Positions 4,541-63,534 of a stretch of DNA of 64,000 bases are shown here, piece after piece (the stretch's first letter is position 1; each line of letters starts with the position of its first letter). The DNA comes from Lumbricus terrestris (taxonomy: Eukaryota; Annelida; Clitellata; Crassiclitellata; Lumbricidae). The stretch is from positions 63,085,470-63,149,469 of the forward strand of contig OX457038.1 of assembly GCA_949752735.1 (NCBI GenBank), given 5' to 3'. The position numbers were made by a program, and so were the translations under genes. Under the pieces are notes generated by a model. That model ran no database searches. It saw nothing but the letters and a program-made list of their open reading frames with translations, and was not told the origin of the DNA.

Positions 4541-4942
4541 TCTAGATTTCTGCTCGAAGAATCAAACTGCTGTTGACCATTGTGCATTCAGATATATTGA
4601 TAGTCTATAATAAATAGAAGGAGTGTACATTGACTGTACAATGTACATTGACTCTACATTGACTGTACATTGTTGGTGGGAAGATGAGACGGCGAGGCAG
4701 AGGATCAGCCATCCATCTTCAAATGTCGAGGCAAAGAAAACGAAGTCGTTCACATTTCGCATGTCTACCCATGACATGGGTCACGATGGGTGACTCCTCA
4801 GGACTAGTTTATATACGAGACTACTCTCTAGTTCTTCTTTAAGTCAACATTTGCGGCAGTTTATAAGGAAAAGCTTTGAAGCAACTTTGTTAATCGATTA
4901 GCTAAGATTAAACTAACATGCAGTGCATTTCTACGTTTTCAG

Positions 4943-7384
4943 CTATCACTCTACCGAGACAGTATTGCAATCAGAGCAAAGACCGAACGCACCCGGACGA
5001 AAGTCATCCAACAACTGAGGAGGCAACAACAACAGATGGAAGCCAGTGCACAGGGTCTTTCGAAGTCTTCTGGTAAAACGTCGTCAGTTCTGCGCAGAAC
5101 CATCCAACTGAGGAACAGTGAAGACAAAGAGAATCAAGGAACATCGTTGAGTAGCAAGAGATTAAGGAAAGATTTAGCAAAGTATCGATCAGACGAGAAC
5201 CAATTGGAAGTTAATCGACTAAAGACAGAGATCTACGAATCATGCAACGCACCACCACACTGCTACTTCCCAACAGAGAAAGTTCGCCATTACGACTACG
5301 AACCAGAGAGACTTCAGACACGTCCATCAATTGCTTTTTGTTCCAGAAAACAATGCTGCAATGTGGATGAAAACGGAAGAGTTGGGAGAACGCTTAAGCG
5401 AAAAGCGACGGACTGTAACCAGAATGAGTTTGAAGCATCCGCCAGAGAAGAGGAAACCAGTTCCAGTGGATGCACAAAGTGGATGTGTCCTACGGTGACT
5501 GTAACAAAACACAATTGGACAGTTGTCACACCGCTAAGACGGACCTCCAGAAGATTCTTCTTGTCTCCTAAGCTGTCAGAAGAGAACGAAGATCAGAGCA
5601 GTGATACTTCCGTTTGGTCGGAAACTTCCACTGGCGCTACAGTCGTCACAGCCCCGATTCTTACAACTAAAGACGAATCTAAAAGCGTATCATCAGTAAA
5701 ACACAACAAAAACGAGAATTTTCGCGTGCCAATCGAACCATCCAATAAACATCCCTGCAGTCTTATTTCAAAGTCTTCCGCACTATCAACTCCGTTGGAA
5801 AACGATGATTCGGTAAGATCTACTTCCGGCGTCGGGACTTCATGCGAAGAAGGTTCAGCTGCTGGCGGTACTGGTTCTCTGAGTTCACTTGGCGGCACTG
5901 GTTCTCTGAGTTTACTTGGTGGCACTGGTTCCCTGAGTTCACTTGACGATGTGAGCAACATCAGTAGAGAACCGGGGCTGAACAGACGCGAAGAAATCTC
6001 AACGAGCTTCAACTTCAACGGTGCCTTCCACAGTACGTTCAACTATCCGCTTCACAGCACCATGAACTTCCAGGGCATCAACCACCTCGATATTTCTCCA
6101 GTACCTTCGTCATCCGCTGCCATATCGCCGCCCGCCCCAACTGTTACTTCTCTGAAGTCCAAGAACACTTGTGTAAGATTGGGACAGGTTCTGAGCATTG
6201 ACAGTGAGCCGAGAAGATTGGTTTGTCGCTGTGCATTCAGTCGCCAAACTCACGATATCGAAGACGGGCAAACACTTCACTTCAACAAACAAGAGCAAAT
6301 CTTTTCTACAAAACGTCAGCGAATGCAGCTTGCACCATCTTCTGAATTAGTCCGGCCGAACAACTACATAGCGACAAGAACAAAGTCAAACGGAAACGGA
6401 CCGATGAAACCCGCACAACCCGAGAAATGCGTGGACGATTTTAGCCTGAAGAAGAAGTATTCGCACCGCACATCTCTGCCACGTCAAACAGGTCAGGTAG
6501 AGCTGACAACATATCCATTCATCTCCGATCCTGCACGATGTCAGCAAATAGGTCTACTAGGACGGTGTCGGTTTCAGAAACAAAAAGCAACAATGCGTTC
6601 GAAGGAAGCAGCTGACACTGAAGCGAAACTTTCAACATCGTCCGAAACTGCTGTCGATTCCCCCAACAATTGTAAAGCTGACACACCAGTTCTTTTTGAA
6701 GCTGTGACTCTCATAATAGACCCACAGAATGATTCCTCTAAAGAACACGAGGTCACCGTCACGACTAAGAAGTGTTCGGTGAATAGGAAAACGACGGTGA
6801 AACGTCGTCGCATCAACAACTGTCTGCCAAGTCTCCTCACATTCGTACCATGTAAATCCCTCAAACGATTCGTGGGAGAAACGATGTCAAAGACAACAGG
6901 AAATCCAACAGAAGGTACAACAGTGACGTTGGACAATGTGACTGCTTGGCTGTGCACTGGAACCAAAGAAACTGCAACAGACACAACAGCAATTCCTACG
7001 TCAACTGGACAGAAAGAACCGAGTCTTGACCAAATCAAGACCTTAAGAAACGACGAATTTTCAATATCAGACATTTCAAACTGGCAAAACTCGGCAGTTG
7101 ATGGCATTGAGACGAAAGAACTCGCTCGATTTTCTGCTCTCGGCAACAGAAACGGGAAGCACGTTTCTGGGAGCAAACAACACGAAAGCAACATCATCAT
7201 CGGTTGGAAGAAGCAACAGAACGAAATGCGAAGACGACGACTCAGAAGAGCACAACACATTTTCAGGAAACAGCAAAGTGACCTGACAAAGAAAAAACGA
7301 AAAGTCAGTCAACTGAAAAAACAGTCAACACAGTCCGATGATGATGATGATACAGTCTGCATCAGAACGCTAGGGGTTTTGTAG
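4943..7384 (+). CDS. Gene 1, main exon: unidentified nuclear-type protein with KEN box
   Basis: The acceptor TTTTCAG (4936-4942) opens a frame running to TAG at 7382-7384. With exon 1 the protein is about 817 residues; if read only from the internal Met at 5036 it would be 782. It begins with a basic helix-prone segment (about residues 5-35, Arg- and Gln-rich), then a KEN box (residues 66-68), the APC/C degradation signal, in an EDKENQ context. A three-copy Gly-Gly-Thr-Gly-Ser-Leu repeat is encoded at about 5866-5946. A basic C-terminus carries KKKRKV (residues 787-792), identical in pattern to the SV40-type nuclear signal. The rest is Ser/Thr/Lys-rich and probably disordered, with no enzyme domain that I recognise. 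The KEN box plus nuclear signal suggests, but does not prove, a cell-cycle-regulated nuclear protein. The frame's length and clean splicing make it a real gene; its identity is open. Confidence 0.75.
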   Translation, partial: LSLYRDSIAIRAKTERTRTKVIQQLRRQQQQMEASAQGLSKSSGKTSSVLRRTIQLRNSEDKENQGTSLSSKRLRKDLAKYRSDENQLEVNRLKTEIYESCNAPPHCYFPTEKVRHYDYEPERLQTRPSIAFCSRKQCCNVDENGRVGRTLKRKATDCNQNEFEASAREEETSSSGCTKWMCPTVTVTKHNWTVVTPLRRTSRRFFLSPKLSEENEDQSSDTSVWSETSTGATVVTAPILTTKDESKSVSSVKHNKNENFRVPIEPSNKHPCSLISKSSALSTPLENDDSVRSTSGVGTSCEEGSAAGGTGSLSSLGGTGSLSLLGGTGSLSSLDDVSNISREPGLNRREEISTSFNFNGAFHSTFNYPLHSTMNFQGINHLDISPVPSSSAAISPPAPTVTSLKSKNTCVRLGQVLSIDSEPRRLVCRCAFSRQTHDIEDGQTLHFNKQEQIFSTKRQRMQLAPSSELVRPNNYIATRTKSNGNGPMKPAQPEKCVDDFSLKKKYSHRTSLPRQTGQVELTTYPFISDPARCQQIGLLGRCRFQKQKATMRSKEAADTEAKLSTSSETAVDSPNNCKADTPVLFEAVTLIIDPQNDSSKEHEVTVTTKKCSVNRKTTVKRRRINNCLPSLLTFVPCKSLKRFVGETMSKTTGNPTEGTTVTLDNVTAWLCTGTKETATDTTAIPTSTGQKEPSLDQIKTLRNDEFSISDISNWQNSAVDGIETKELARFSALGNRNGKHVSGSKQHESNIIIGWKKQQNEMRRRRLRRAQHIFRKQQSDLTKKKRKVSQLKKQSTQSDDDDDTVCIRTLGVL

Positions 7385-7748: not shown

Positions 7749-9424
7749 TTCTGATTAGATAAAATGGCAAACGGATTGGTAGTTATGTTAACTGATGTTT
7801 TGTTTTATTGATTAGATAAAATGGCAAAAGGATTAGTTATGTCAACTGATGTTTGTTTTATTGATTAGATAAAATGGCAAAAGGATTAGTTAGGTCAACT
7901 GATGTTTTGTTTCATTGATTAGATAAAATGGCAAAAGGATTAGTTAGGTCAACTGATGTTTTGTTTCATTGATTAGATAAAATGGCAAAAGGTTTAGTTA
8001 GGTCAACTGATGTTTTGTTTCATTGATTAGATAAAATGGCAAAAGGATTAGTTAGGTCAACTGATGTTTTGTTTCATTGATTAGATAAAATGGCAAAAGG
8101 TTTAGTTAGGTCAACTGATGTTTTGTTTCATTGATTAGATAAAATGGCAAAAGGATTAGTTAGGTCAACTGATGTTTTGTTTCATTGATTAGATAAAATG
8201 GCAAAAGGTTTAGTTAGGTCAACTGATGTTTTGTTTCATTGATTAGATAAAATGGCAAAAGGATTAGTTAGGTCAACTGATGTTTTGTTTCATTGATTAG
8301 ATAAAATGGCAAAAGGTTTAGTTAGGTCAACTGATGTTTTGTTTCATTGATTAGATAAAATGGCAAAAGGTTTAGTTAGGTCAACTGATGTTTTGTTTCA
8401 TTGATTAGATAAAATGGCAAAAGGATTAGTTAGGTCAACTGATGTTTTGTTTCATTGATTAGATAAAATGGCAAAAGGTTTAGTTAGGTCAACTGATGTT
8501 TTGTTTCATTGATTAGATAAAATGGCAAAAGGATTAGTTAGGTCAACTGATGTTTTGTTTCATTGATTAGATAAAATGGCAAAAGGTTTAGTTAGGTCAA
8601 CTGATGTTTTGTTTCATTGATTAGATAAAATGGCAAAAGGATTAGTTAGGTCAACTGATGTTTTGTTTCATTGATTAGATAAAATGGCAAAAGGTTTAGT
8701 TAGGTCAACTGATGTTTTGTTTCATTGATTAGATAAAATGGCAAAAGGATTAGTTAGGTCAACTGATGTTTTGTTTCATTGATTAGATAAAATGGCAAAA
8801 GGTTTAGTTAGGTCAACTGATGTTTTGTTTCATTGATTAGATAAAATGGCAAAAGGATTAGTTAGGTCAACTGATGTTTTGTTTCATTGATTAGATAAAA
8901 TGGCAAAAGGATTAGTTAGGTCAATTGATGTTTTGTTTCATTGATTAGATAAAATGGCAAAAGGTTTAGTTAGGTCAACTGATGTTTTGTTTCATTGATT
9001 AGATAAAATGGCAAAAGGATTAGTTAGGTCAACTGATGTTTTGTTTCATTGATTAGATAAAATGGCAAAAGGTTTAGTTAGGTCAACTGATGTTTTGTTT
9101 CATTGATTAGATAAAATGGCAAAAGGATTAGTTAGGTCAACTGATGTTTTGTTTCATTGATTAGATAAAATGGCAAAAGGTTTAGTTAGGTCAACTGATG
9201 TTTTGTTTCATTGATTAGATAAAATGGCAAAAGGATTAGTTAGGTCAACTGATGTTTTGTTTCATTGATTAGATAAAATGGCAAAAGGTTTAGTTAGGTC
9301 AACTGATGTTTTGTTTCATTGATTAGATAAAATGGCAAAAGGATTAGTTAGGTCAACTGATGTTTTGTTTCATTGATTAGATAAAATGGCAAAAGGTTTA
9401 GTTAGGTCAACTGATGTTTTGTTT
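7749..9424. repeat. 54-bp satellite array with a 108-bp dimer pattern
   Basis: About 31 near-identical copies of a 54-base unit that includes ATTAGATAAAATGGCAAAAG and GTCAACTGATGTTTTG. One position alternates between GGATTAG and GGTTTAG in successive copies, forming a 108-bp higher-order unit. The alternation breaks twice, with two T-type copies near 8312/8366 and two A-type copies near 8854/8908. It lies between the 3' ends of the two convergent genes. Confidence 0.95.
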
Positions 9425-9649
9425 TATTTTGATCAAATGACAACAAAACGAAAGAATGTCACGAAACAAAAACAAAATGCAGAAGCGATGGATCATCGAG
9501 CGAATCATACAATGTTTTATCGTCATTTGTTTTATGTTGATGAGCAGAGACAACAATCAAATCTGAGATCACGACGTATGAAAGGAGACTCAAAGGAGAG
9601 AGATACTCGACACTCGACAGGAGGCTAAAGACAGACAGTGAGACACATA

Positions 9650-11795: not shown

Positions 11796-46664
<34,869 letters not shown>

Positions 46665-46860: not shown

Positions 46861-47205
46861 CACGGTTTTGGTCCACTATTCCGAGGGTCCACTATTCCGA
46901 AGGTCCACTATTCCGAACCCTAACCCTAAGCCTAACCCTAACTATAACCGGAATAACCCTAACTCACCCCAACCCTAACCATAACCCTAACCCACCTCAA
47001 TCCCAACCATAACCATAACCCTCCCCCTCCCCAACCCTAACCATTACCCTAAACCTAATCCTAACCCACCCAACCCTAACCCACCCTAACCCAACCCTAA
47101 CTCACTGTAACCCTAACCACAAGGATAACGAACAAAATATAGCGGATACTCGGAACAGTGGACCTTCGGAAGAGTGGACCCTCGGAATAGCGGGCCGTTA
47201 CCGCA
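46861..47205. mobile_element. Inverted-repeat element enclosing telomere-like repeats
   Basis: Both ends carry two to three copies of GGTCCACTATTCCGAAGG-like units in opposite orientation, forming roughly 60-base inverted repeats. Between them 46915-47120 is degenerate CCCTAACC / ACCCTAACCATAA sequence resembling the animal telomere repeat. It lies just upstream of the first placed exon of gene 2. No coding capacity. Confidence 0.7.
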
Positions 47206-55543: not shown

Positions 55544-56000
55544 GTCTCAGGCAACAGCATTGTCGAGAGACAAAGTCTGGCAAACACTATTGACACCCCA
55601 CAAACGTGCAATACAGCTTACTTCGCGTGCACAAGCAAATATAGTCTACACCCAGCTGAATAAACCATATTGTGTGCTGAAAATTCCCCAATATCGCGGT
55701 ATAGTCAATAAACCATCGTATACTGCACACAAAATAATAACGCCACAACTGTGCAACGAAAATATATGGAATCGCACCAAGCTCCTTTAATATCATCCTG
55801 CACAGTGAGCAGCCCAACTCTTCCTTCATCATCAAGTATACTCTAGCTGCGTGACTCATTTTCATTTCGAATGCCAAGATTGATTAAATAGACTTATGAT
55901 GGTTCGACAGATCCTCGAAAACGCATTCCGCTGCTTTTCGTCAACATCGAGCTTAATAAAGCGATTTTATGGCATCTGCTATGCTGCACTTAACTCATAT

Positions 56001-56556
56001 TGTGAGCTAATGTTGTATAGTCTATATAGTCAGTTAATGTTTAGGCGTACGACTAGACCAGCTCAAGGTCAGCGTCTAGACAGTTAGGCCTGCAGGTGAC
56101 AGACTGGCGGGAAAGTTGGCGCGGCTCGGCCGACCGTCGCCGGAGAGCGCGAGAGAGAGAGGGATAGGCAGACAGACAGACGGACAGATAGAAGGACAGA
56201 GCGGCAAGGGGAAGAGTGTACGTCTAGACAGTGAGTTAAGTGGTAGAAGAATGAGTTGGTAAGAGAGAGTAGAAGACGTTTTAGAGAACAGTGGAGTTAG
56301 ATAATAATAGTTGCGTTGCTGTCGTTGAATTCAAGCGTTTGTCGTAGTTGATCCTTTGTTGTGCTATTTGCGTTGTTATGAACGAAGAAGAAAATACAAG
56401 AAACAGAGCTTTGTTGTAATTGAACAAGTTGAGAACTTTAGAAACTTATACACTAGCTTTAGATACCGAAATACAGTGACTAGGTTAGGCCTAGGCTGCG
56501 CTACTGAACACTGAAGAAAAAGGAAGAAAACTTTGAAGGTCAATTGGAGGTTGACA
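56001..56556 (+). repeat. 5' LTR
   Basis: Starts TGTGAGC and ends TTGACA. Matches 62812-63367 at 555 of 556 positions by eye. A TCTATATAG string at about 56020 could be a TATA-like element, and a GA/CAGA-rich zone (about 56150-56200) follows. U3/R/U5 borders cannot be set from sequence alone. Confidence 0.97.
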
Positions 56557-56559
56557 TTT

Positions 56560-56577
56560 TGGTGGCAGCGGTGGGAT
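56560..56577 (+). promoter_or_regulatory. Primer-binding site for tRNA-Leu
   Basis: Three bases after the LTR, TGGTGGCAGCGGTGGGAT is an 18-base perfect complement to the 3' end, including CCA, of animal tRNA-Leu (AAG type, as I know its sequence). Minus-strand DNA synthesis would start here. Confidence 0.88.
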
Positions 56578-56616
56578 ACTGAACTCAAGCAAAGGACGTT
56601 GGGATAGCGAACTCAT

Positions 56617-56778
56617 TTGGAGGAATATTTTCAATTGGAGGAATATTTTCAATCGGAGGAATATTTTCAATTGGAGGAATATTTTCAATTGGAGGAATAT
56701 TTTCAATTGGCGGAATATTTTCAATCGGAGGAATATTTTCAATTGGAGGAATATTTTCAGTCGAAGGAATATTTACGA
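56617..56778 (+). repeat. 18-bp tandem repeat in the element's leader
   Basis: Nine copies of TTGGAGGAATATTTTCAA with small changes lie between the primer site and the gag start. The repeat leaves frames open on both strands (Glu-Glu-Tyr-Phe-Gln; antisense Ile-Glu-Asn-Ile-Pro-Pro), but these do not join gag. A role in packaging or translation is only a guess. Confidence 0.9.
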
Positions 56779-56974
56779 TTGGAGACGCATTTCGGAGTCT
56801 GGTGAGAAGATACAACGGGCATACGAATAACATTACGACAACGCAACGCCAGAGAGAGGTATACAAAACTTGCTTGTTTACCCAAGGAGCCATAAGAATT
56901 AAAGTCAGCCAATCACAGATATTCATAGCCACTCCCTCGATTCTTCACGGTAATCACTGAAGTAAAGAAGTAAG

Positions 56975-59900
56975 ATGGAGAAACTTACAGAACAAAAGCA
57001 AGCCAGTATAAAGAAGATGTCTTCTGATCGATTAATAAAGTTATTAATTGAAGAGGGTCTAGACGTAGAAGAAGTCGAAGAGATGTCTAGAGAAAATTTG
57101 ATGAGAGCATTAGCAGAGGTTTGGCTTAAAAAGGAAGCTGAAGAGAAAGGTGCTGTGGGTGGCGCTGAGGAGAAACCAATTGAAAAACCACCGGCACCGA
57201 TGTCTATGGAGGCGTTGATGCAATTTATGATGATGAGGGAGGAGCAACGCAGACAGGAAGAGAAAGAACGGAAACAAGAAGAGAAAGAGAAAGAGGAACA
57301 AAGGAGACAACAGGAGAAGGAGAAAGAAGAACAACGTAGACAAGAGGAGAAAGCGAAAGAGGAGCAACGCAGACAAGAAGAGAAAGTGAAAGAGGAACAA
57401 CGGAGAAAAGAGGAGAAAGAGAAAGAAGAGCAACGTAGACAAGAAGAGAAAGAGAAAGAGGAGCAACGGAGACGAGAGGAGAAAGAACAAAAACAAGAAG
57501 AGAAAGAGAAAGAGGAGAAACGGAGACAAGAAGAGAAAGAACGGAGACAAGAAGAGAAAGAACGGAGACAAGAAGAGATTGAACGAACAGAAAAGCTTCG
57601 ACTAGAGGAAAAAGCAAGAGCAGAACAAGCAGAAAGGATGAGACAAGAAGAGATACAGATGCAGAAGCAGCAGTTCCAGCTTCAGCTAGAACAACTGAAA
57701 AGAGATCGTGACGAAGCTGAACGAAGAAGAATGGAATTGATGATAGAATACGAGAGAGCAGGGAAAAGTGATGAAGAAATACGAAAACAACAGATGGAAG
57801 AGCAAAAGATTCGTGAGGAAGACAAAGAAGCCATGCGTTTGGCAGAATTACAAAGAGCCGAAGAGATTCGACAGGAAGAATTGAAAATGGAGAAAGAAAA
57901 TTTGGAAAAAGCGGAAAGAGAAAGGGAAGAACAATTAGAATTAGAACAAAAGAAACTCGCTCTTAAGGAAGCTCAGCTCCGAGAAATGGCTATAGAAAAG
58001 GAGGAACGCAGAAAACAGTTAGAATTGTTGCAGCAAAAGATAGAACAAGAAGAACTGCGTAGGGTAGAAGATCAAAATAGACTGAGGGAACGAAATGAAG
58101 ACGAAAGAAGAAGCCGTGAAGAGTCAGAACGAAACAGGATCAGAGAAAGTGAGACAATGGTGTCCAAGATTAAAAGGATAGGTGATGCAATGAAACACGT
58201 ATTACCTAAGATGCCATATGATATGATGGAGGTGCCATTATATTTTGAGACAGTTGAGAATGCATTCAACAGTTTTACGGTGGAAAAGCAGTTTTGGGTC
58301 AAATTGCTGTTGCCACTAATGACGCCTAGAGCAAGAACGGTGTTGAACCGATTGTCTTTCGCTGATCTAGACGATTACGACATAGTGAAAGAACATTTAC
58401 TGAAAGAATTCAAATTGACAGCGAGAGAATATCGATCACGATTTGGAGATGCGAGGAAAACGGCAGAAGAAACATACACGATGTTTACAGCAAGATTGAA
58501 GAATCTGTTGAACTATTATGTCAGAAGTAGGCGAGTGGGCAAAAGCTACGAGAAGTTATTTGATCTGTTGGTGGCGGATAAATTGAAAGAATGTCTACCA
58601 CCGGGTCCACTACAGTTCGTACTAGCAAAAGAGGGTACTGAATGCTTTGAAGCTAGTAATGTTGCAGAACTCGCAGACGTACACGTGAACAATCGAATTG
58701 GTCTAATGTTTCAAGACAAACCGAAATATGAAGCATGGGGAAATAGTTCGAAGCAACCCAGGTGGAATAGTAATAACAAAGAAACAGGAAATCAAGCCAG
58801 AAATAACGAAGCAAGGAATGATGGTGCTCCTGGAAGACAGTTTGGTCAAGATAGAAGAGAAGCAACGGGTGACAGACAAATGTACAGTCGAATTCCAGTG
58901 ATGGGACGCCAAAGAGAAAACAATACAGCGTACAATTACAGGCGGGAGAGCACTGAACAGAGAGGGATTGTTAAAAAACGTTGCCATAATTGTCAGTCAG
59001 ACCGACATCTGTTAAAGGATTGCAAAGCACCACCCAGAATGACAAATCTGAGAAATAGATTTACTCGAAGTGCAGAAAATCTCAGAGTAAATCAGATACA
59101 AGTAATGAATGCACCGAATCAGTCTGAAGAACAAGACAACCGCGAAACGGAAGTGAAGTCAGTGATGAAGTGCACGCCTCAATTTGCTATACAGAGAGAA
59201 ATAGTAAATTCTGCTCCAATTAAAGATACTGGTCGAGAAACAGAAAGCAAAGATGAATGTCAACGTACGAAGAAGTCTTTACTACAGCATGTCAATGTAG
59301 AGATACGTGGAAATGATGACAGTTGTCATCCCGTGCAAGTCAGAGCGCTGATCGACTCTGGTACTGAGATTCCAGTAATCAATGAGGAATTGTTGAAAGG
59401 AGCGACAGTGGAAGAAATTGGCAGAGTACATTTGCAATGTGTGGCTGGAGAACCCATTCCAGCTAAGTTGGTGAAAATCGAAGTGCGGATGAGTTGTCAT
59501 AACGAAGGAGGAGATTTGAAAGACAAGGGAGTAAATATCGCGCCATATTTAACCTTGGTGTGTGCCAGCATTCCGGCAGTCTTGTGCAAAGATAACAAAG
59601 AAAAGTTCTTGCTGCATCCAGAGATAATCGCAGAACTGAAAGAGGTTCCACCAGTGAATGTATTACAAGGAGAATTGCAAGTGAACGTGACTACAAGAGC
59701 ACAGAGTCGGAGAAGAGAAGTGGAAGAAGGAGAAGAGGAAAAGTCAAATGAAAGTTTGCTAGATGAGGACACAGAAAGCGATGATGAACAAAGCGTTCAA
59801 GAAGAAGAAGAAGGAATAACATCCGGAAACAATGAAATTGAAGAAGAGATGGTTGCATGTGAACGTGATAATGATGATGATTCTGAGAATGATGGTGAAA

Positions 59901-62698
59901 TAGACACGAGTATGAGGGATTTGTTTGCCGAAAATACGAGTGATGAAAGACAATTAGCAGACGCAAAGAAATTTGAAGAGCAGCAGAGAAATGACGAGTC
60001 ACTGAGGTCGTGGTGGAAGATAGCTGAAGACAAAGGATCAGAGTTTAGTGTGGTGAATGGGTTGATGTATAAGAAGCATCAAATGTTGGACCAGTTGGTG
60101 TATCAGTTGGTGTTGCCGAAGGAAAGAAGAATTCAGGTGATGGAATTGGCACATGAGTCAGTATTTGGCGGACACTTGGGAGAAGAGAAGACAAGGGAAC
60201 GTATCAAGTTGTCCTTTGTGTGGCCAAGAATGCGTAGAGATGTGGTGAAGTTCTGCAAGTCCTGTGAGAAGTGTCAGTTGAAAGCACGAAGTTTGGTGAT
60301 GGATCGAGTGCCGATTACACCAATACCAAGAGAGGATGTACCGTTCAGAAGAATGACCATGGACGTCGTAGGACCAATCGAACCGACTTCAGCAGCAGGG
60401 CATAAGTATTGTTTGTGCATCGTGGACTCATGTACAAGATGGCCGACAATATTCTTGATGAAGTCATTGACCGCTAAGGCTGTATGCGAAGCTTTGATGA
60501 AGCTGTTCATGGATGTGGGAGTTCCGTCAGTAATCACGAGTGATAGAGGAACGAATTTTACAGCCAGTCTAACAAGAGAATTTCTGAAACTGATGGGGTG
60601 TTGTCCTCGATTCGATTCGCCAGGACATCCAGAAGCGGCAGGATTGGTGGAGAGATGGAATCAAACGTTCAAGAAAATGATTCATCATGTCGTTGTGGAA
60701 AATCCGAGACAGTGGCATAAAATTATTCCATTTACAGTCTGGGCATTGAGAGAAGTGCCTAATGCAACTACAGGAGTGGCACCGTATTTGCTGGTCTATG
60801 GAAAGTTGCCGAGAGGGCCACTCACCATCCTTAAAGAAAGCTGGACCAAAGAAATAAATCTACCACCGAACATTGGAGTACAACCGGCAAAGTACCTGAA
60901 GAATTTAAGAGCAGACATGGAAAAGGCCTTGACATTCGCCGAGAGCTGTGCTGAAGAAAAGCAAAAACAGTACGCCAGTCAATACAACAAAAGAGCAAAA
61001 GATAAAGAATTCGAGCCAGGAGAGAACGTCATCGTGCTGTATCCAACGTCAACCAATAAATTGATCTCCCGATGGCATGGTCCATGCACGGTCCTGCAAA
61101 GAAGATCCAAATATTCGTATCTGGTGGACATGAACGAAAACGGTCGACGGATTATTCATGCTAACAAGATGAGGAAGTTCATTACGAGAACATTGTCTTG
61201 TGGTCTGATCGTGGAAGAGGATGACGAATTTGGATCAGTGGTAGAAATACCGCTGAAGGAAGACTATTCAGAGACAAAACAGAAGTCACTTCAATTGGAT
61301 TACGAACAAATTGGACATCTGACCAGCGAACAGCAGAAACAATTACTTGATGTACTGAATCGATATGCAGATAGATTTTCAGACCAACCTGGATTATGTA
61401 CATTAGTAGAACACGAAGTGGTACTGAGACCAGACTTTCGAGAAAAAGAATTCGTGGCATATCGAATACCATTAATATACCGAGCAGAAGTGGAAAAACA
61501 AATACAAGAGATGCTGAAAGAAAACATCATTCAACCATCGTCAAGCAGAATGGCAAGTCCACTTGTCATTGTCAAAAAGAAGAATGGATCCTTGAGATTG
61601 GCTTGTGACTACAGGTACATTAACTCTTTTACTGAAAATTGCCGATATCCTATGCCAATCGTCAACGATGTCTTGAGCAAAGTTGGAAAATCCAAGTTCA
61701 TTTCTGTTATGGACTGTCGCAGTGCATATTGGACTTGTCCTGTGAAAAAGAGTGACCAATGGAAGACGGCGTTTGTTACACATAATGGACTGTATGAATT
61801 TACGCGTGTTCCTTTTGGAATGATTAACTCTGGACGGACTTTTGTAAAAGCGATAAATATGATCTTGCAACCGATTCATGATTTTACTGAACCTTATGTT
61901 GATGACATTGCAGTGCATTCGAATGATTGGGACAGTCATTTAAGACATTTGGAATTATTTTTGAAACAAATAAGACTGCATAATGTAACATTGAACTTGA
62001 AGAAATGTGTGTTTGGTAAGAGTGAGGTGAAGTTCATCGGTCACCTCATAGGATCAGGGAAGAAGATGATGAATCCAGACAGGATTGACAGTTTAATTAA
62101 TTTGAAGAAACCTGAAACCAGGAAGGAAGTGAAGCAAGTCTTAGGATTTTTTGGATTTTACAGACAGTTTATTTGTAATTTTGCTGAAATTGCTAAACCA
62201 TTGACAGACTTGACCAGCAAAAAAGTACCTGATAACATTGTTTGGACTGATGCACATCAGAAATCTTTTGATTCCCTTAAACAGATTGTCTTATCAAATG
62301 TGATTCTATATATGTTTGAGGTTGGGAAACCATTTAATTTGTACTGTGATAGCAGTGATTTTGCTGTGGGAGCTGTACTGTCTCAGGTGGACGAGGAAGG
62401 GATTGAACGTCCCGTTTCATTTATCAGTCAGAAGCTGACAGATACTCAGAGGAGGTGGGCGACGATTGAGAAGGAAGCCTATGCAATCATATGGGCTTTA
62501 AACAAGTTGAAAGAAATTCTTATTGGTTCTAAAATCAATGTTTTTACAGACCATAATCCTTTAGTTTATTTGACTGAATCAATGTCGAAATCTGCTAAAT
62601 TAGTCAGATGGTCTTTATCATTGCAAAATTTTGACATTCTGTTGAACTATAAGAAAGGTAAATTGAATGTAGTAGCTGATTGTCTGTCTAGATTGTAG
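56975..62698 (+). CDS. Gag-Pol polyprotein of Gmr1-like retrotransposon (1,907 aa)
   Basis: Domains in order. Residues 1-395: charged coiled coil, with Arg-Gln-Glu-Glu-Lys repeats at about 89-205. About 415-573: capsid; its C-terminal part (about 524-573) resembles a SCAN domain. 670-683: zinc knuckle CHNCQSDRHLLKDC (C-x2-C-x4-H-x4-C). 794-796: aspartic protease DSG. An acidic linker. 1060-1100: integrase zinc finger (H1060, H1067, C1097, C1100). Integrase core D1130, D1190, E1226, with exactly 35 residues between the last two. About 1366-1405: GPY/F module, no chromodomain. About 1505-1705: reverse transcriptase with D1580 and YVDD at 1641-1644. About 1785-1905: RNase H with D1792, E1834, D1859. 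Integrase before reverse transcriptase marks the Gmr1 group. No stop or frameshift separates gag from pol, so Gag excess must arise another way, or not at all. The ATG at 56975 is chosen as the first in this frame. Confidence 0.96.
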   Translation: MEKLTEQKQASIKKMSSDRLIKLLIEEGLDVEEVEEMSRENLMRALAEVWLKKEAEEKGAVGGAEEKPIEKPPAPMSMEALMQFMMMREEQRRQEEKERKQEEKEKEEQRRQQEKEKEEQRRQEEKAKEEQRRQEEKVKEEQRRKEEKEKEEQRRQEEKEKEEQRRREEKEQKQEEKEKEEKRRQEEKERRQEEKERRQEEIERTEKLRLEEKARAEQAERMRQEEIQMQKQQFQLQLEQLKRDRDEAERRRMELMIEYERAGKSDEEIRKQQMEEQKIREEDKEAMRLAELQRAEEIRQEELKMEKENLEKAEREREEQLELEQKKLALKEAQLREMAIEKEERRKQLELLQQKIEQEELRRVEDQNRLRERNEDERRSREESERNRIRESETMVSKIKRIGDAMKHVLPKMPYDMMEVPLYFETVENAFNSFTVEKQFWVKLLLPLMTPRARTVLNRLSFADLDDYDIVKEHLLKEFKLTAREYRSRFGDARKTAEETYTMFTARLKNLLNYYVRSRRVGKSYEKLFDLLVADKLKECLPPGPLQFVLAKEGTECFEASNVAELADVHVNNRIGLMFQDKPKYEAWGNSSKQPRWNSNNKETGNQARNNEARNDGAPGRQFGQDRREATGDRQMYSRIPVMGRQRENNTAYNYRRESTEQRGIVKKRCHNCQSDRHLLKDCKAPPRMTNLRNRFTRSAENLRVNQIQVMNAPNQSEEQDNRETEVKSVMKCTPQFAIQREIVNSAPIKDTGRETESKDECQRTKKSLLQHVNVEIRGNDDSCHPVQVRALIDSGTEIPVINEELLKGATVEEIGRVHLQCVAGEPIPAKLVKIEVRMSCHNEGGDLKDKGVNIAPYLTLVCASIPAVLCKDNKEKFLLHPEIIAELKEVPPVNVLQGELQVNVTTRAQSRRREVEEGEEEKSNESLLDEDTESDDEQSVQEEEEGITSGNNEIEEEMVACERDNDDDSENDGEIDTSMRDLFAENTSDERQLADAKKFEEQQRNDESLRSWWKIAEDKGSEFSVVNGLMYKKHQMLDQLVYQLVLPKERRIQVMELAHESVFGGHLGEEKTRERIKLSFVWPRMRRDVVKFCKSCEKCQLKARSLVMDRVPITPIPREDVPFRRMTMDVVGPIEPTSAAGHKYCLCIVDSCTRWPTIFLMKSLTAKAVCEALMKLFMDVGVPSVITSDRGTNFTASLTREFLKLMGCCPRFDSPGHPEAAGLVERWNQTFKKMIHHVVVENPRQWHKIIPFTVWALREVPNATTGVAPYLLVYGKLPRGPLTILKESWTKEINLPPNIGVQPAKYLKNLRADMEKALTFAESCAEEKQKQYASQYNKRAKDKEFEPGENVIVLYPTSTNKLISRWHGPCTVLQRRSKYSYLVDMNENGRRIIHANKMRKFITRTLSCGLIVEEDDEFGSVVEIPLKEDYSETKQKSLQLDYEQIGHLTSEQQKQLLDVLNRYADRFSDQPGLCTLVEHEVVLRPDFREKEFVAYRIPLIYRAEVEKQIQEMLKENIIQPSSSRMASPLVIVKKKNGSLRLACDYRYINSFTENCRYPMPIVNDVLSKVGKSKFISVMDCRSAYWTCPVKKSDQWKTAFVTHNGLYEFTRVPFGMINSGRTFVKAINMILQPIHDFTEPYVDDIAVHSNDWDSHLRHLELFLKQIRLHNVTLNLKKCVFGKSEVKFIGHLIGSGKKMMNPDRIDSLINLKKPETRKEVKQVLGFFGFYRQFICNFAEIAKPLTDLTSKKVPDNIVWTDAHQKSFDSLKQIVLSNVILYMFEVGKPFNLYCDSSDFAVGAVLSQVDEEGIERPVSFISQKLTDTQRRWATIEKEAYAIIWALNKLKEILIGSKINVFTDHNPLVYLTESMSKSAKLVRWSLSLQNFDILLNYKKGKLNVVADCLSRL

Positions 62699-62791
62699 TG
62701 TAAGATATTTTATGATGTATTATGTTATGGACTATTTGCATTGTTTAGTTAAAGTACGTTCGCTAATTTTTATAGATAATTAGCTCTCTTT

Positions 62792-62808
62792 AAAAGAAAG
62801 GAGGGAGG
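62792..62808 (+). promoter_or_regulatory. Polypurine tract
   Basis: AAAAGAAAGGAGGGAGG, pure A/G, ends three bases before the 3' LTR and would prime plus-strand DNA synthesis. Confidence 0.9.
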
Positions 62809-62811
62809 TAA

Positions 62812-63367
62812 TGTGAGCTAATGTTGTATAGTCTATATAGTCAGTTAATGTTTAGGCGTACGACTAGACCAGCTCAAGGTCAGCGTCTAGACAGTTAGGC
62901 CTGCAGGTGACAGACTGGCGGGAAAGTTGGCGCGGCTCGGCCGACCGTCGCCGGAGAGCGCGAGAGAGAGAGGGATAGGCAGACAGACAGACGGACAGAT
63001 AGAAGGACAGAGCGGCAAGGGGAAGAGTGTACGTCTAGACAGTGAGTTAAGTGGTAGAAGAAGGAGTTGGTAAGAGAGAGTAGAAGACGTTTTAGAGAAC
63101 AGTGGAGTTAGATAATAATAGTTGCGTTGCTGTCGTTGAATTCAAGCGTTTGTCGTAGTTGATCCTTTGTTGTGCTATTTGCGTTGTTATGAACGAAGAA
63201 GAAAATACAAGAAACAGAGCTTTGTTGTAATTGAACAAGTTGAGAACTTTAGAAACTTATACACTAGCTTTAGATACCGAAATACAGTGACTAGGTTAGG
63301 CCTAGGCTGCGCTACTGAACACTGAAGAAAAAGGAAGAAAACTTTGAAGGTCAATTGGAGGTTGACA
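62812..63367 (+). repeat. 3' LTR
   Basis: 556 bases, identical to the 5' LTR except G at 63063. Followed by the target duplication CATAT. Confidence 0.97.
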
Positions 63368-63534
63368 CATATTATGGCATCTGATTACGTCTCGCTTTAC
63401 ATTCCTTTATCAGCCAAGGACTTGGTGTGTCCACCGTTTGACATGCTTGAGTTTAAGCCAACTGAACAAACCATCAGAATGGTACAAGATTCCACGATAC
63501 TATAAAACAACCATACAATATAAGAACTTGAAAA

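What the first reader, a model, noticed from the sequence alone, without database searches (positions are those of the whole stretch)
55996..63372. Intact, very young Gmr1-type element with integrase before reverse transcriptase
Seen: integrase finger and DDE core (residues 1060-1226) come before YVDD (1641-1644) and RNase H in one frame, inside LTRs differing by one base in 556 with an exact 5-bp target duplication. Known: this swapped order defines Gmr1-like Ty3/gypsy elements reported by Goodwin and Poulter. Inference: the copy inserted recently and may still be mobile; full-length, coding-intact copies are valuable for studying how the order works.
Basis: partly seen in the sequence, partly recalled or inferred. 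Interest (0 to 1): 0.85.

Follow-up and report, generated by a model that had tools for sequence, protein, structure and literature searches.

The report
Active integrase-first gypsy retrotransposon family
This is a recently inserted, intact jumping element of a known type (integrase before reverse transcriptase), one of at least 36 closely similar two-ended copies in its animal genome, whose short primer-binding site appears to be rewritten from host tRNA at each jump, as in retroviruses and unlike its yeast relative Ty3.

Summary
Observation confirmed to the base: 556-bp LTRs with one difference, TSD CATAT, one 1907-aa Gag-Pol frame with integrase before RT and RNase H. The Gmr1-type reading is supported: 101 of 120 listed relatives share the order, and in RT-RNase H and integrase trees the sampled integrase-first elements lie on one side of one branch. 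Gag carries the SCAN-related capsid of Gmr1-like elements. Authentic Gmr1 was not available, so placement rests on proxies.

New: of the 40 best-matching copies in the genome (window included), 36 have both LTRs; 27 of these pairs have no mismatch and 35 an exact TSD. The family is in a recent burst. The 18-nt primer-binding site has four versions without ancestry signal (position 6: 11 steps, 11.5 expected from shuffling), while a site 7 nt away follows the copy tree. I infer recopying from one of several tRNA primers each cycle, as in retroviruses; Ty3 does not do this (PMC5371799). The matching tRNA genes could not be searched for: the tool stayed unreachable. New member structurally; new variant in replication mode.

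The parts
55996..56000 (.). target-site duplication CATAT, left
56001..56556 (+). 5' LTR (TG...CA, 556 bp)
56560..56577 (+). 18-nt primer-binding site, 3 nt after the LTR; haplotype GCT of four found among copies
   Evidence: tRNA-Leu identity recalled, not tested
56613..56784 (+). 18-bp leader minisatellite, length-variable among copies
56975..62698 (+). single Gag-Pol frame, 1907 aa plus stop
57258..57585 (+). 33/21-bp repeats coding for a charged, coiled-coil-like Gag segment (coil is inference from sequence), length-variable among copies
58175..58684 (+). Gag capsid region, related to SCAN-bearing Gag (residues 401-570)
58982..59023 (+). CCHC zinc knuckle (C670-C683)
59315..59614 (+). aspartic protease region, D794-S-G (profile match weak, below cut-off)
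60104..61189 (+). integrase: HHCC, D-D35-E, GPY/F module (residues 1044-1405)
61190..61402 (+). integrase-RT junction with conserved acidic DFG motif (D1416, F1419, G1420)
61403..62074 (+). reverse transcriptase (residues 1477-1700), YVDD 1641
62243..62692 (+). RNase H (residues 1757-1906)
62792..62808 (+). polypurine tract, 3 nt before the 3' LTR
   Evidence: read directly
62812..63367 (+). 3' LTR
63368..63372 (.). target-site duplication CATAT, right

Best explanation
A complete, very recently inserted member of a Ty3/gypsy family of the Gmr1 type, in recent expansion in an unidentified animal genome. Shown: structure, integrase-first order, conserved catalytic residues, SCAN-type capsid, at least 36 two-LTR copies (window included) mostly with mismatch-free LTRs and exact 5-bp duplications, and a primer-binding site whose four versions are shuffled relative to copy ancestry while nearby sites are not. 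Inferred: the RNA is made from the LTR; Gag-Pol is translated as one chain and cut by its protease; reverse transcription starts from one of several closely related host tRNAs (probably tRNA-Leu species); plus-strand strong-stop synthesis copies 18 nt of that tRNA up to the modified A58, so each new copy takes its primer-binding site from the tRNA used, as in retroviruses; integrase trims about three nt from each end to CA and inserts with a 5-bp stagger.
For: Structure. Order in relatives: 101 of 120 IN-RT, 18 RT-IN, 1 incomplete. Trees. Capsid: hhalign probability 99.8 against Gag of 10 SCAN-bearing elements; AF2 model pLDDT 85.9 with Arc and SCAN structures ranked first by Foldseek. Copies: 36 of 40 with both LTRs; 27, 5, 1, 2 and 1 pairs with 0, 1, 3, 4 and 9 mismatches (24 without mismatch or indel); TSD exact in 35 of 36; 36 of 36 Gag pieces open over the 191-289 codons held; 7 of 8 integrase-to-RNase H pieces open, window copy among the 7. 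PBS: position 6 needs 11 steps (shuffle mean 11.5), positions 7 and 13 four steps for four copies each; a site 7 nt past the PBS, not used for the tree, needs 2 steps against 10.4, and LTR sites 16 and 13 nt before the PBS 1 and 5 against 4.8 and 9.0, none of 300 shuffles as low. Of 85 variable sites PBS position 6 needs most steps, 11, next 7. Of 37 copy pairs with at most 2 differences over about 1,090 bp, 25 differ in PBS. Retroviral PBS is tRNA-derived, Ty3's is not.
Against: No tRNA gene matching the four PBS versions was located: the genome search was unreachable from then on. All three PBS differences are transitions, so editing or mutation hot spots are not excluded by type. Positions 7 and 13 are not unique: four other sites of the 85 also change once for every minor copy, and six LTR sites with only two minor copies show no signal either (no power). 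The 37 close pairs overlap in membership. Copies are the 40 most similar to the window's RT, a sample biased to young ones. No authentic Gmr1 in the trees; only 18 RT-first rows as contrast, several on long branches; no AU test run. No Foldseek match reached E 0.001. One of eight checked copies is interrupted (L002). No expression data.
Confidence: 0.78

Rival explanations
1. An ordinary Gmr1-type element whose PBS is inherited from the RNA template as in Ty3; the shuffled PBS comes from recombination between co-packaged RNAs of different copies.
For: Other sites also show homoplasy, so some recombination between copies is likely; LTR elements package two RNAs (established knowledge).
Against: Recombination would shuffle flanks too, but the site 7 nt past the PBS and LTR sites 13 and 16 nt before it keep strong tree signal; it would need two crossovers within about 30-40 nt, again and again.
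Confidence: 0.1
2. PBS variation is recurrent mutation or RNA editing in the PBS-tRNA duplex, not primer copying.
For: All three variable positions show transitions; a few other sites are as homoplasious as PBS positions 7 and 13; PMC7472051 (section 13 read) discusses recurrent PBS mutation in mouse ERVs.
Against: In the 35 copies only three of 18 positions vary, always with the same alternatives; they correspond to paired tRNA positions 71, 70 and 64 (mapping recalled from tRNA numbering).
Confidence: 0.1
3. Chimera or misassembly of two elements produced the integrase-first order.
For: None found.
Against: One uninterrupted frame, same order in 101 of 120 relatives, one open frame over integrase to RNase H in 6 of 7 other copies checked.
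Confidence: 0.01
4. Independent origin of integrase-first order in this lineage, so it works like Gmr1 but is not of that clade.
For: No authentic Gmr1 in the trees; the integrase-first side contains several deep groups and the root is not inferred.
Against: One change of order explains both RT-RNase H and IN trees; capsid homologous to SCAN-bearing Gag.
Confidence: 0.06

Closest known systems
Gmr1-like Ty3/gypsy elements (Goodwin and Poulter 2002; paper not seen, cited in PMC3587641 as ref. 59)
   Same: Ty3-type RT, integrase upstream of RT, SCAN-related Gag (PMC4592553 and PMC3424704, passages read), single Gag-Pol frame and young copies as in pufferfish Gmr elements (PMC11117352, passages read)
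   Different: Larger frame (1907 aa against 1506-1634 in PMC11117352), repeat-built variable N-terminal Gag segment, 18-bp leader minisatellite; primer-binding site shuffled among copies (not mentioned in the passages read)
Yeast Ty3
   Same: Homologous RT-RNase H and integrase, LTRs, 5-bp duplication (Ty3's recalled)
   Different: Ty3 has RT-RNase H before integrase, and its PBS is not perpetuated by copying the tRNA (PMC5371799, passages read); here the PBS looks tRNA-derived
Retroviruses such as HIV-1 and MLV
   Same: 18-nt PBS, inferred renewal from the tRNA primer, alternative-primer signatures (PMC6450007, passages read)
   Different: RT before integrase; no env here (113 bp between stop and 3' LTR); PBS alternatives are common here, on average 0.52% (Lys5) in HIV-1 plasma (PMC6450007)
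Ty1/copia
   Same: Integrase-before-RT order
   Different: RT and integrase match Ty3-type sequences and profiles

Membership tests
Gmr1-like Ty3/gypsy | integrase upstream of RT-RNase H in one pol | tested here: met
Gmr1-like Ty3/gypsy | RT of Ty3/gypsy, not copia, type | tested here: met
   Ty3 is the best PDB match by sequence; Pfam RVT_1 with RT_RNaseH
Gmr1-like Ty3/gypsy | RT and IN trees place it with Gmr1 | tested here: inconclusive
   Groups with the sampled integrase-first elements, SCAN-bearing Anolis and Penaeus ones among them, on one side of a branch; authentic Gmr1 not available
Gmr1-like Ty3/gypsy | Gag capsid related to the SCAN domain | tested here: met
   hhalign 99.8% against SCAN-bearing Gag; Foldseek SCAN matches with probability 0.95-1.00 but E 0.09-1.3. 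Direct Pfam SCAN match weak: 17.3 bits for the capsid piece, cut-off 27; none for the whole window protein, 1 of 13 members of A1 at E up to 1
Metaviridae replicating like Ty3 | PBS inherited from the RNA template | tested here: not met
   indirect: PBS carries no ancestry signal while nearby sites do
Retroviridae | env gene | tested here: not met
   Only 113 bp between the Gag-Pol stop and the 3' LTR
Recently active family | near-identical LTR pairs and exact TSDs at many sites | tested here: met
   27 of 36 with no mismatch, 35 of 36 exact TSD
Retrovirus-like PBS renewal | host tRNA genes match each PBS version | not tested
   the genome search pattern search did not complete (29 tries)

The most novel reading that the evidence does not exclude
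Gmr1-type Ty3/gypsy elements renew the primer-binding site from the tRNA primer at each cycle, like retroviruses and unlike Ty3, and use at least four tRNA species interchangeably. If so, retroviral plus-strand transfer is not restricted to retroviruses, and the PBS of such families is a direct genomic record of which tRNA primed each insertion.
Probability: 0.65. Interest if true: 0.65.

Novelty: new variant of a known kind. Interest (0 to 1): 0.5.

Why it matters
The element itself is a new member of a described clade. What adds value is a family with dozens of closely similar, datable copies in which the 18-nt primer site switches independently of its surroundings. That makes the strand-transfer mode of a non-retroviral LTR element readable from one genome, and offers a way to ask when the retroviral mode arose relative to Ty3. 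It also shows that integrase-first order is compatible with recent, high-copy expansion.

Tried and rejected
Misassembly: rejected. Second copy or solo LTR elsewhere in the window: none at blastn E up to 1e-3. Viral-contig scans with single proteins, which reach close relatives only: none. Host naming through the 834-aa frame: two unnamed relatives only. tRNA genes in the window: none; Rfam: none. Four viral contigs hold the 22-base tRNA-end pattern; ARAGORN puts a tRNA gene over the hit in three of them (Ser, Met, Met), so the pattern alone does not prove tRNA-Leu. Per-sequence palindromy of target sites: not significant, 81 against 81.6, although A/T stands at mirrored positions -3 (32 of 35) and +7 (35 of 35). 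Whole-LTR count of the genome: asked three times, unanswered and given up, so no solo-LTR number. In one search the LTR columns beyond about -40 and post-PBS columns 31-60 are affected by indels and are not used.

Full report
OBSERVATION. LTRs 56001-56556 and 62812-63367 are 556 bp and differ at one base; CATAT flanks both ends. One frame runs from 56966 to 62698, 1907 codons from the ATG at 56975. Three nt after the 5' LTR comes an 18-nt primer-binding site (56560-56577); a 17-nt purine run ends three nt before the 3' LTR (read). Both cDNA 3' ends would thus be CA plus three nt, the kind of end an integrase trims (inference).

DOMAIN ORDER. Pfam finds integrase zinc finger and core before RT and RNase H. 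Aligned to Ty3 (7q5b), the integrase segment matches chain residues 1088-1447 and RT-RNase H 583-1008, so the integrase with its GPY/F module sits in front as one block. Zinc-knuckle, protease, HHCC, DDE, RT and RNase H catalytic residues are invariant or at least 90% conserved in an alignment of the window with 12 relatives.

RELATIVES. A search with the IN-RT-RNase H region gave 207 proteins, of which the best 120 were listed: 101 integrase-first, 18 RT-first, 1 incomplete. A second search from a distant integrase-first protein gave 959, best 120 listed, 115 of them new, all 115 integrase-first. In RT-RNase H trees (113 rows, SH-aLRT 98, 61 selected rows with all 18 RT-first ones, support 95/99) and the integrase tree (120 rows, support 90) order changes once. 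Named rows on the integrase-first side are tick, scorpion, penaeid shrimp, Anolis and a frog (names). Limits: RT-first rows are few and chosen by similarity, some branches are long and warns that long branches meet, the root is not inferred, no AU test was run, and authentic Gmr1 is missing.

GAG. The capsid region aligns with Gag of 10 SCAN-bearing integrase-first elements at hhalign probability 99.8. A model of it (pLDDT 85.9, pTM 0.57) finds Arc and SCAN structures first; no match has E below 0.001, SCAN chains have E 0.09-1.3 and probabilities 0.95-1.00. The direct Pfam SCAN match of the piece stays below the cut-off. That the SCAN domain came from Gmr1-like Gag is in print (PMC4592553 and PMC3424704, passages read).

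COPIES. The window lies in a 1.056-Gb genome. Of 1047 first-look candidates the 40 best matches to 601 bp of RT were scored, all listed at 99-100% identity, the window's own among them. I fetched both ends of each in pieces. 36 had both LTRs: 27 pairs with 0 mismatches, 5 with 1, 1 with 3, 2 with 4, 1 with 9; six pairs also have one indel, so 24 pairs are fully identical. TSDs are exact in 35 of 36. Two of the 36, on C7, share a TSD and look like a tandem duplication, so they count as one insertion. The four dropped copies lacked a complete LTR at one end in the piece fetched. 36 of 36 Gag pieces are open over the 191-289 codons held. Of eight 3.6-kb pieces from integrase to past RNase H, seven are open (the window's copy is one of them) and one, L002, is interrupted. 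The leader array varies from 5 to 20 units by motif count and the Gag repeat segment from 115 to 202 aa where measurable (33 of 36). The sample is biased to young copies.

AGE. One difference in 556 gives K about 0.0018 for the window copy. Without a host rate I give no years; 27 of the 36 pairs are younger by this measure.

PRIMER-BINDING SITE. Among 36 copies four versions occur, differing at positions 6, 7 and 13: 17, 11, 4 and 4 copies. On a tree of LTR, leader and Gag start without the PBS they need 19 changes, no fewer than shuffled labels (mean 16.6, 200 of 200 as low). Site by site (35 copies after dropping the tandem duplicate), PBS position 6 needs 11 steps, as after shuffling (147 of 300 as low), and positions 7 and 13 need the maximum of 4. 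A site 7 nt past the PBS, which was not used for the tree, needs 2 steps against 10.4 after shuffling; LTR sites 16 and 13 nt before the PBS, which were used, need 1 and 5 against 4.8 and 9.0 (0 of 300 each). Six nearby LTR sites with only two minor copies have no power. In one search, over 85 variable sites (at least 3 minor copies), PBS position 6 has most steps (11, next 7); but four non-PBS sites, like PBS 7 and 13, change once for every minor copy, so hot spots or recombination exist elsewhere too. Of 37 pairs with at most two differences over about 1,090 bp, 25 differ in PBS and 12 agree, about what the version frequencies give by chance; nearest-neighbour agreement is 8.2 of 35 against 11.1 after shuffling. 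The pairs overlap in membership.

READING OF IT. In retroviruses the PBS of the new copy is taken from the tRNA; in Ty1 and Ty3 it is not (PMC7472051, section 13 read; PMC5371799, passages read; the primary papers by Lauermann and Boeke were not seen). From recalled tRNA numbering the three positions pair with tRNA 71, 70 and 64, and complementarity ends before A58, where retroviral copying stops. The window's version matches the 3' end of animal tRNA-Leu(AAG/TAG) as I recall it. The direct test, matching tRNA genes in this genome, did not complete by the tool.

LITERATURE. Gmr1-like elements are known from fish, frogs, crustaceans and an annelid (PMC11117352, PMC4131045, PMC3587641, PMC8220671, passages read). 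My searches for PBS switching listed HIV/SIV and mouse ERV papers among others; in the listings and the passages I read I saw no report for Gmr1-type elements, but the library omits most subscription journals.

VERDICT. Known kind of element, correctly recognised, in an unusually informative burst; the probable retrovirus-like renewal of its primer site is the part worth following.

Noticed in passing
56613-56784: 18-bp minisatellite in the element's leader; 5 to 20 units by motif count among 36 copies.
   Followed up: partly
L079-L082 (G000 C7:39.90-39.92 Mb): Two copies 7,748 bp apart share TSD CTGAT, length and PBS: apparently a tandem duplication of a whole insertion.
   Followed up: partly
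61190-61402: Integrase-RT junction holds an acidic ..DFG motif; a strict pattern hits 24 of 101 integrase-first (one of these, P0005, outside the junction) and 0 of 18 RT-first proteins, and 0 of the 115 new proteins.
   Followed up: partly
P0099, P0100, P0102, P0105-P0108, P0123-P0237: A large distant group of integrase-first proteins from unnamed ENA contigs, many long; two zinc knuckles in the three read (P0099, P0102, P0105); host unknown.
   Followed up: partly
target sites of the copies: Three of 35 insertions lie in (TATG)n, two of them with the same 19 bp, others in CATC and ATAC repeats; A/T at mirrored positions -3 and +7.
   Followed up: partly
33401-35710: A non-LTR RT fragment (RVT_1, 34161-34751) lies between two arrays of the same 33-bp satellite unit.
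   Followed up: no
7752-9428: 54-bp satellite, 31 copies, 97% matches.
   Followed up: no
46916-47118: Interstitial AACCCT telomere-like repeats.
   Followed up: no
4880-7381: 834-aa open frame without Pfam match; two unnamed relatives at 50-53% identity.
   Followed up: partly
24963-25463: Exon-like match to a myotubularin phosphatase.
   Followed up: no
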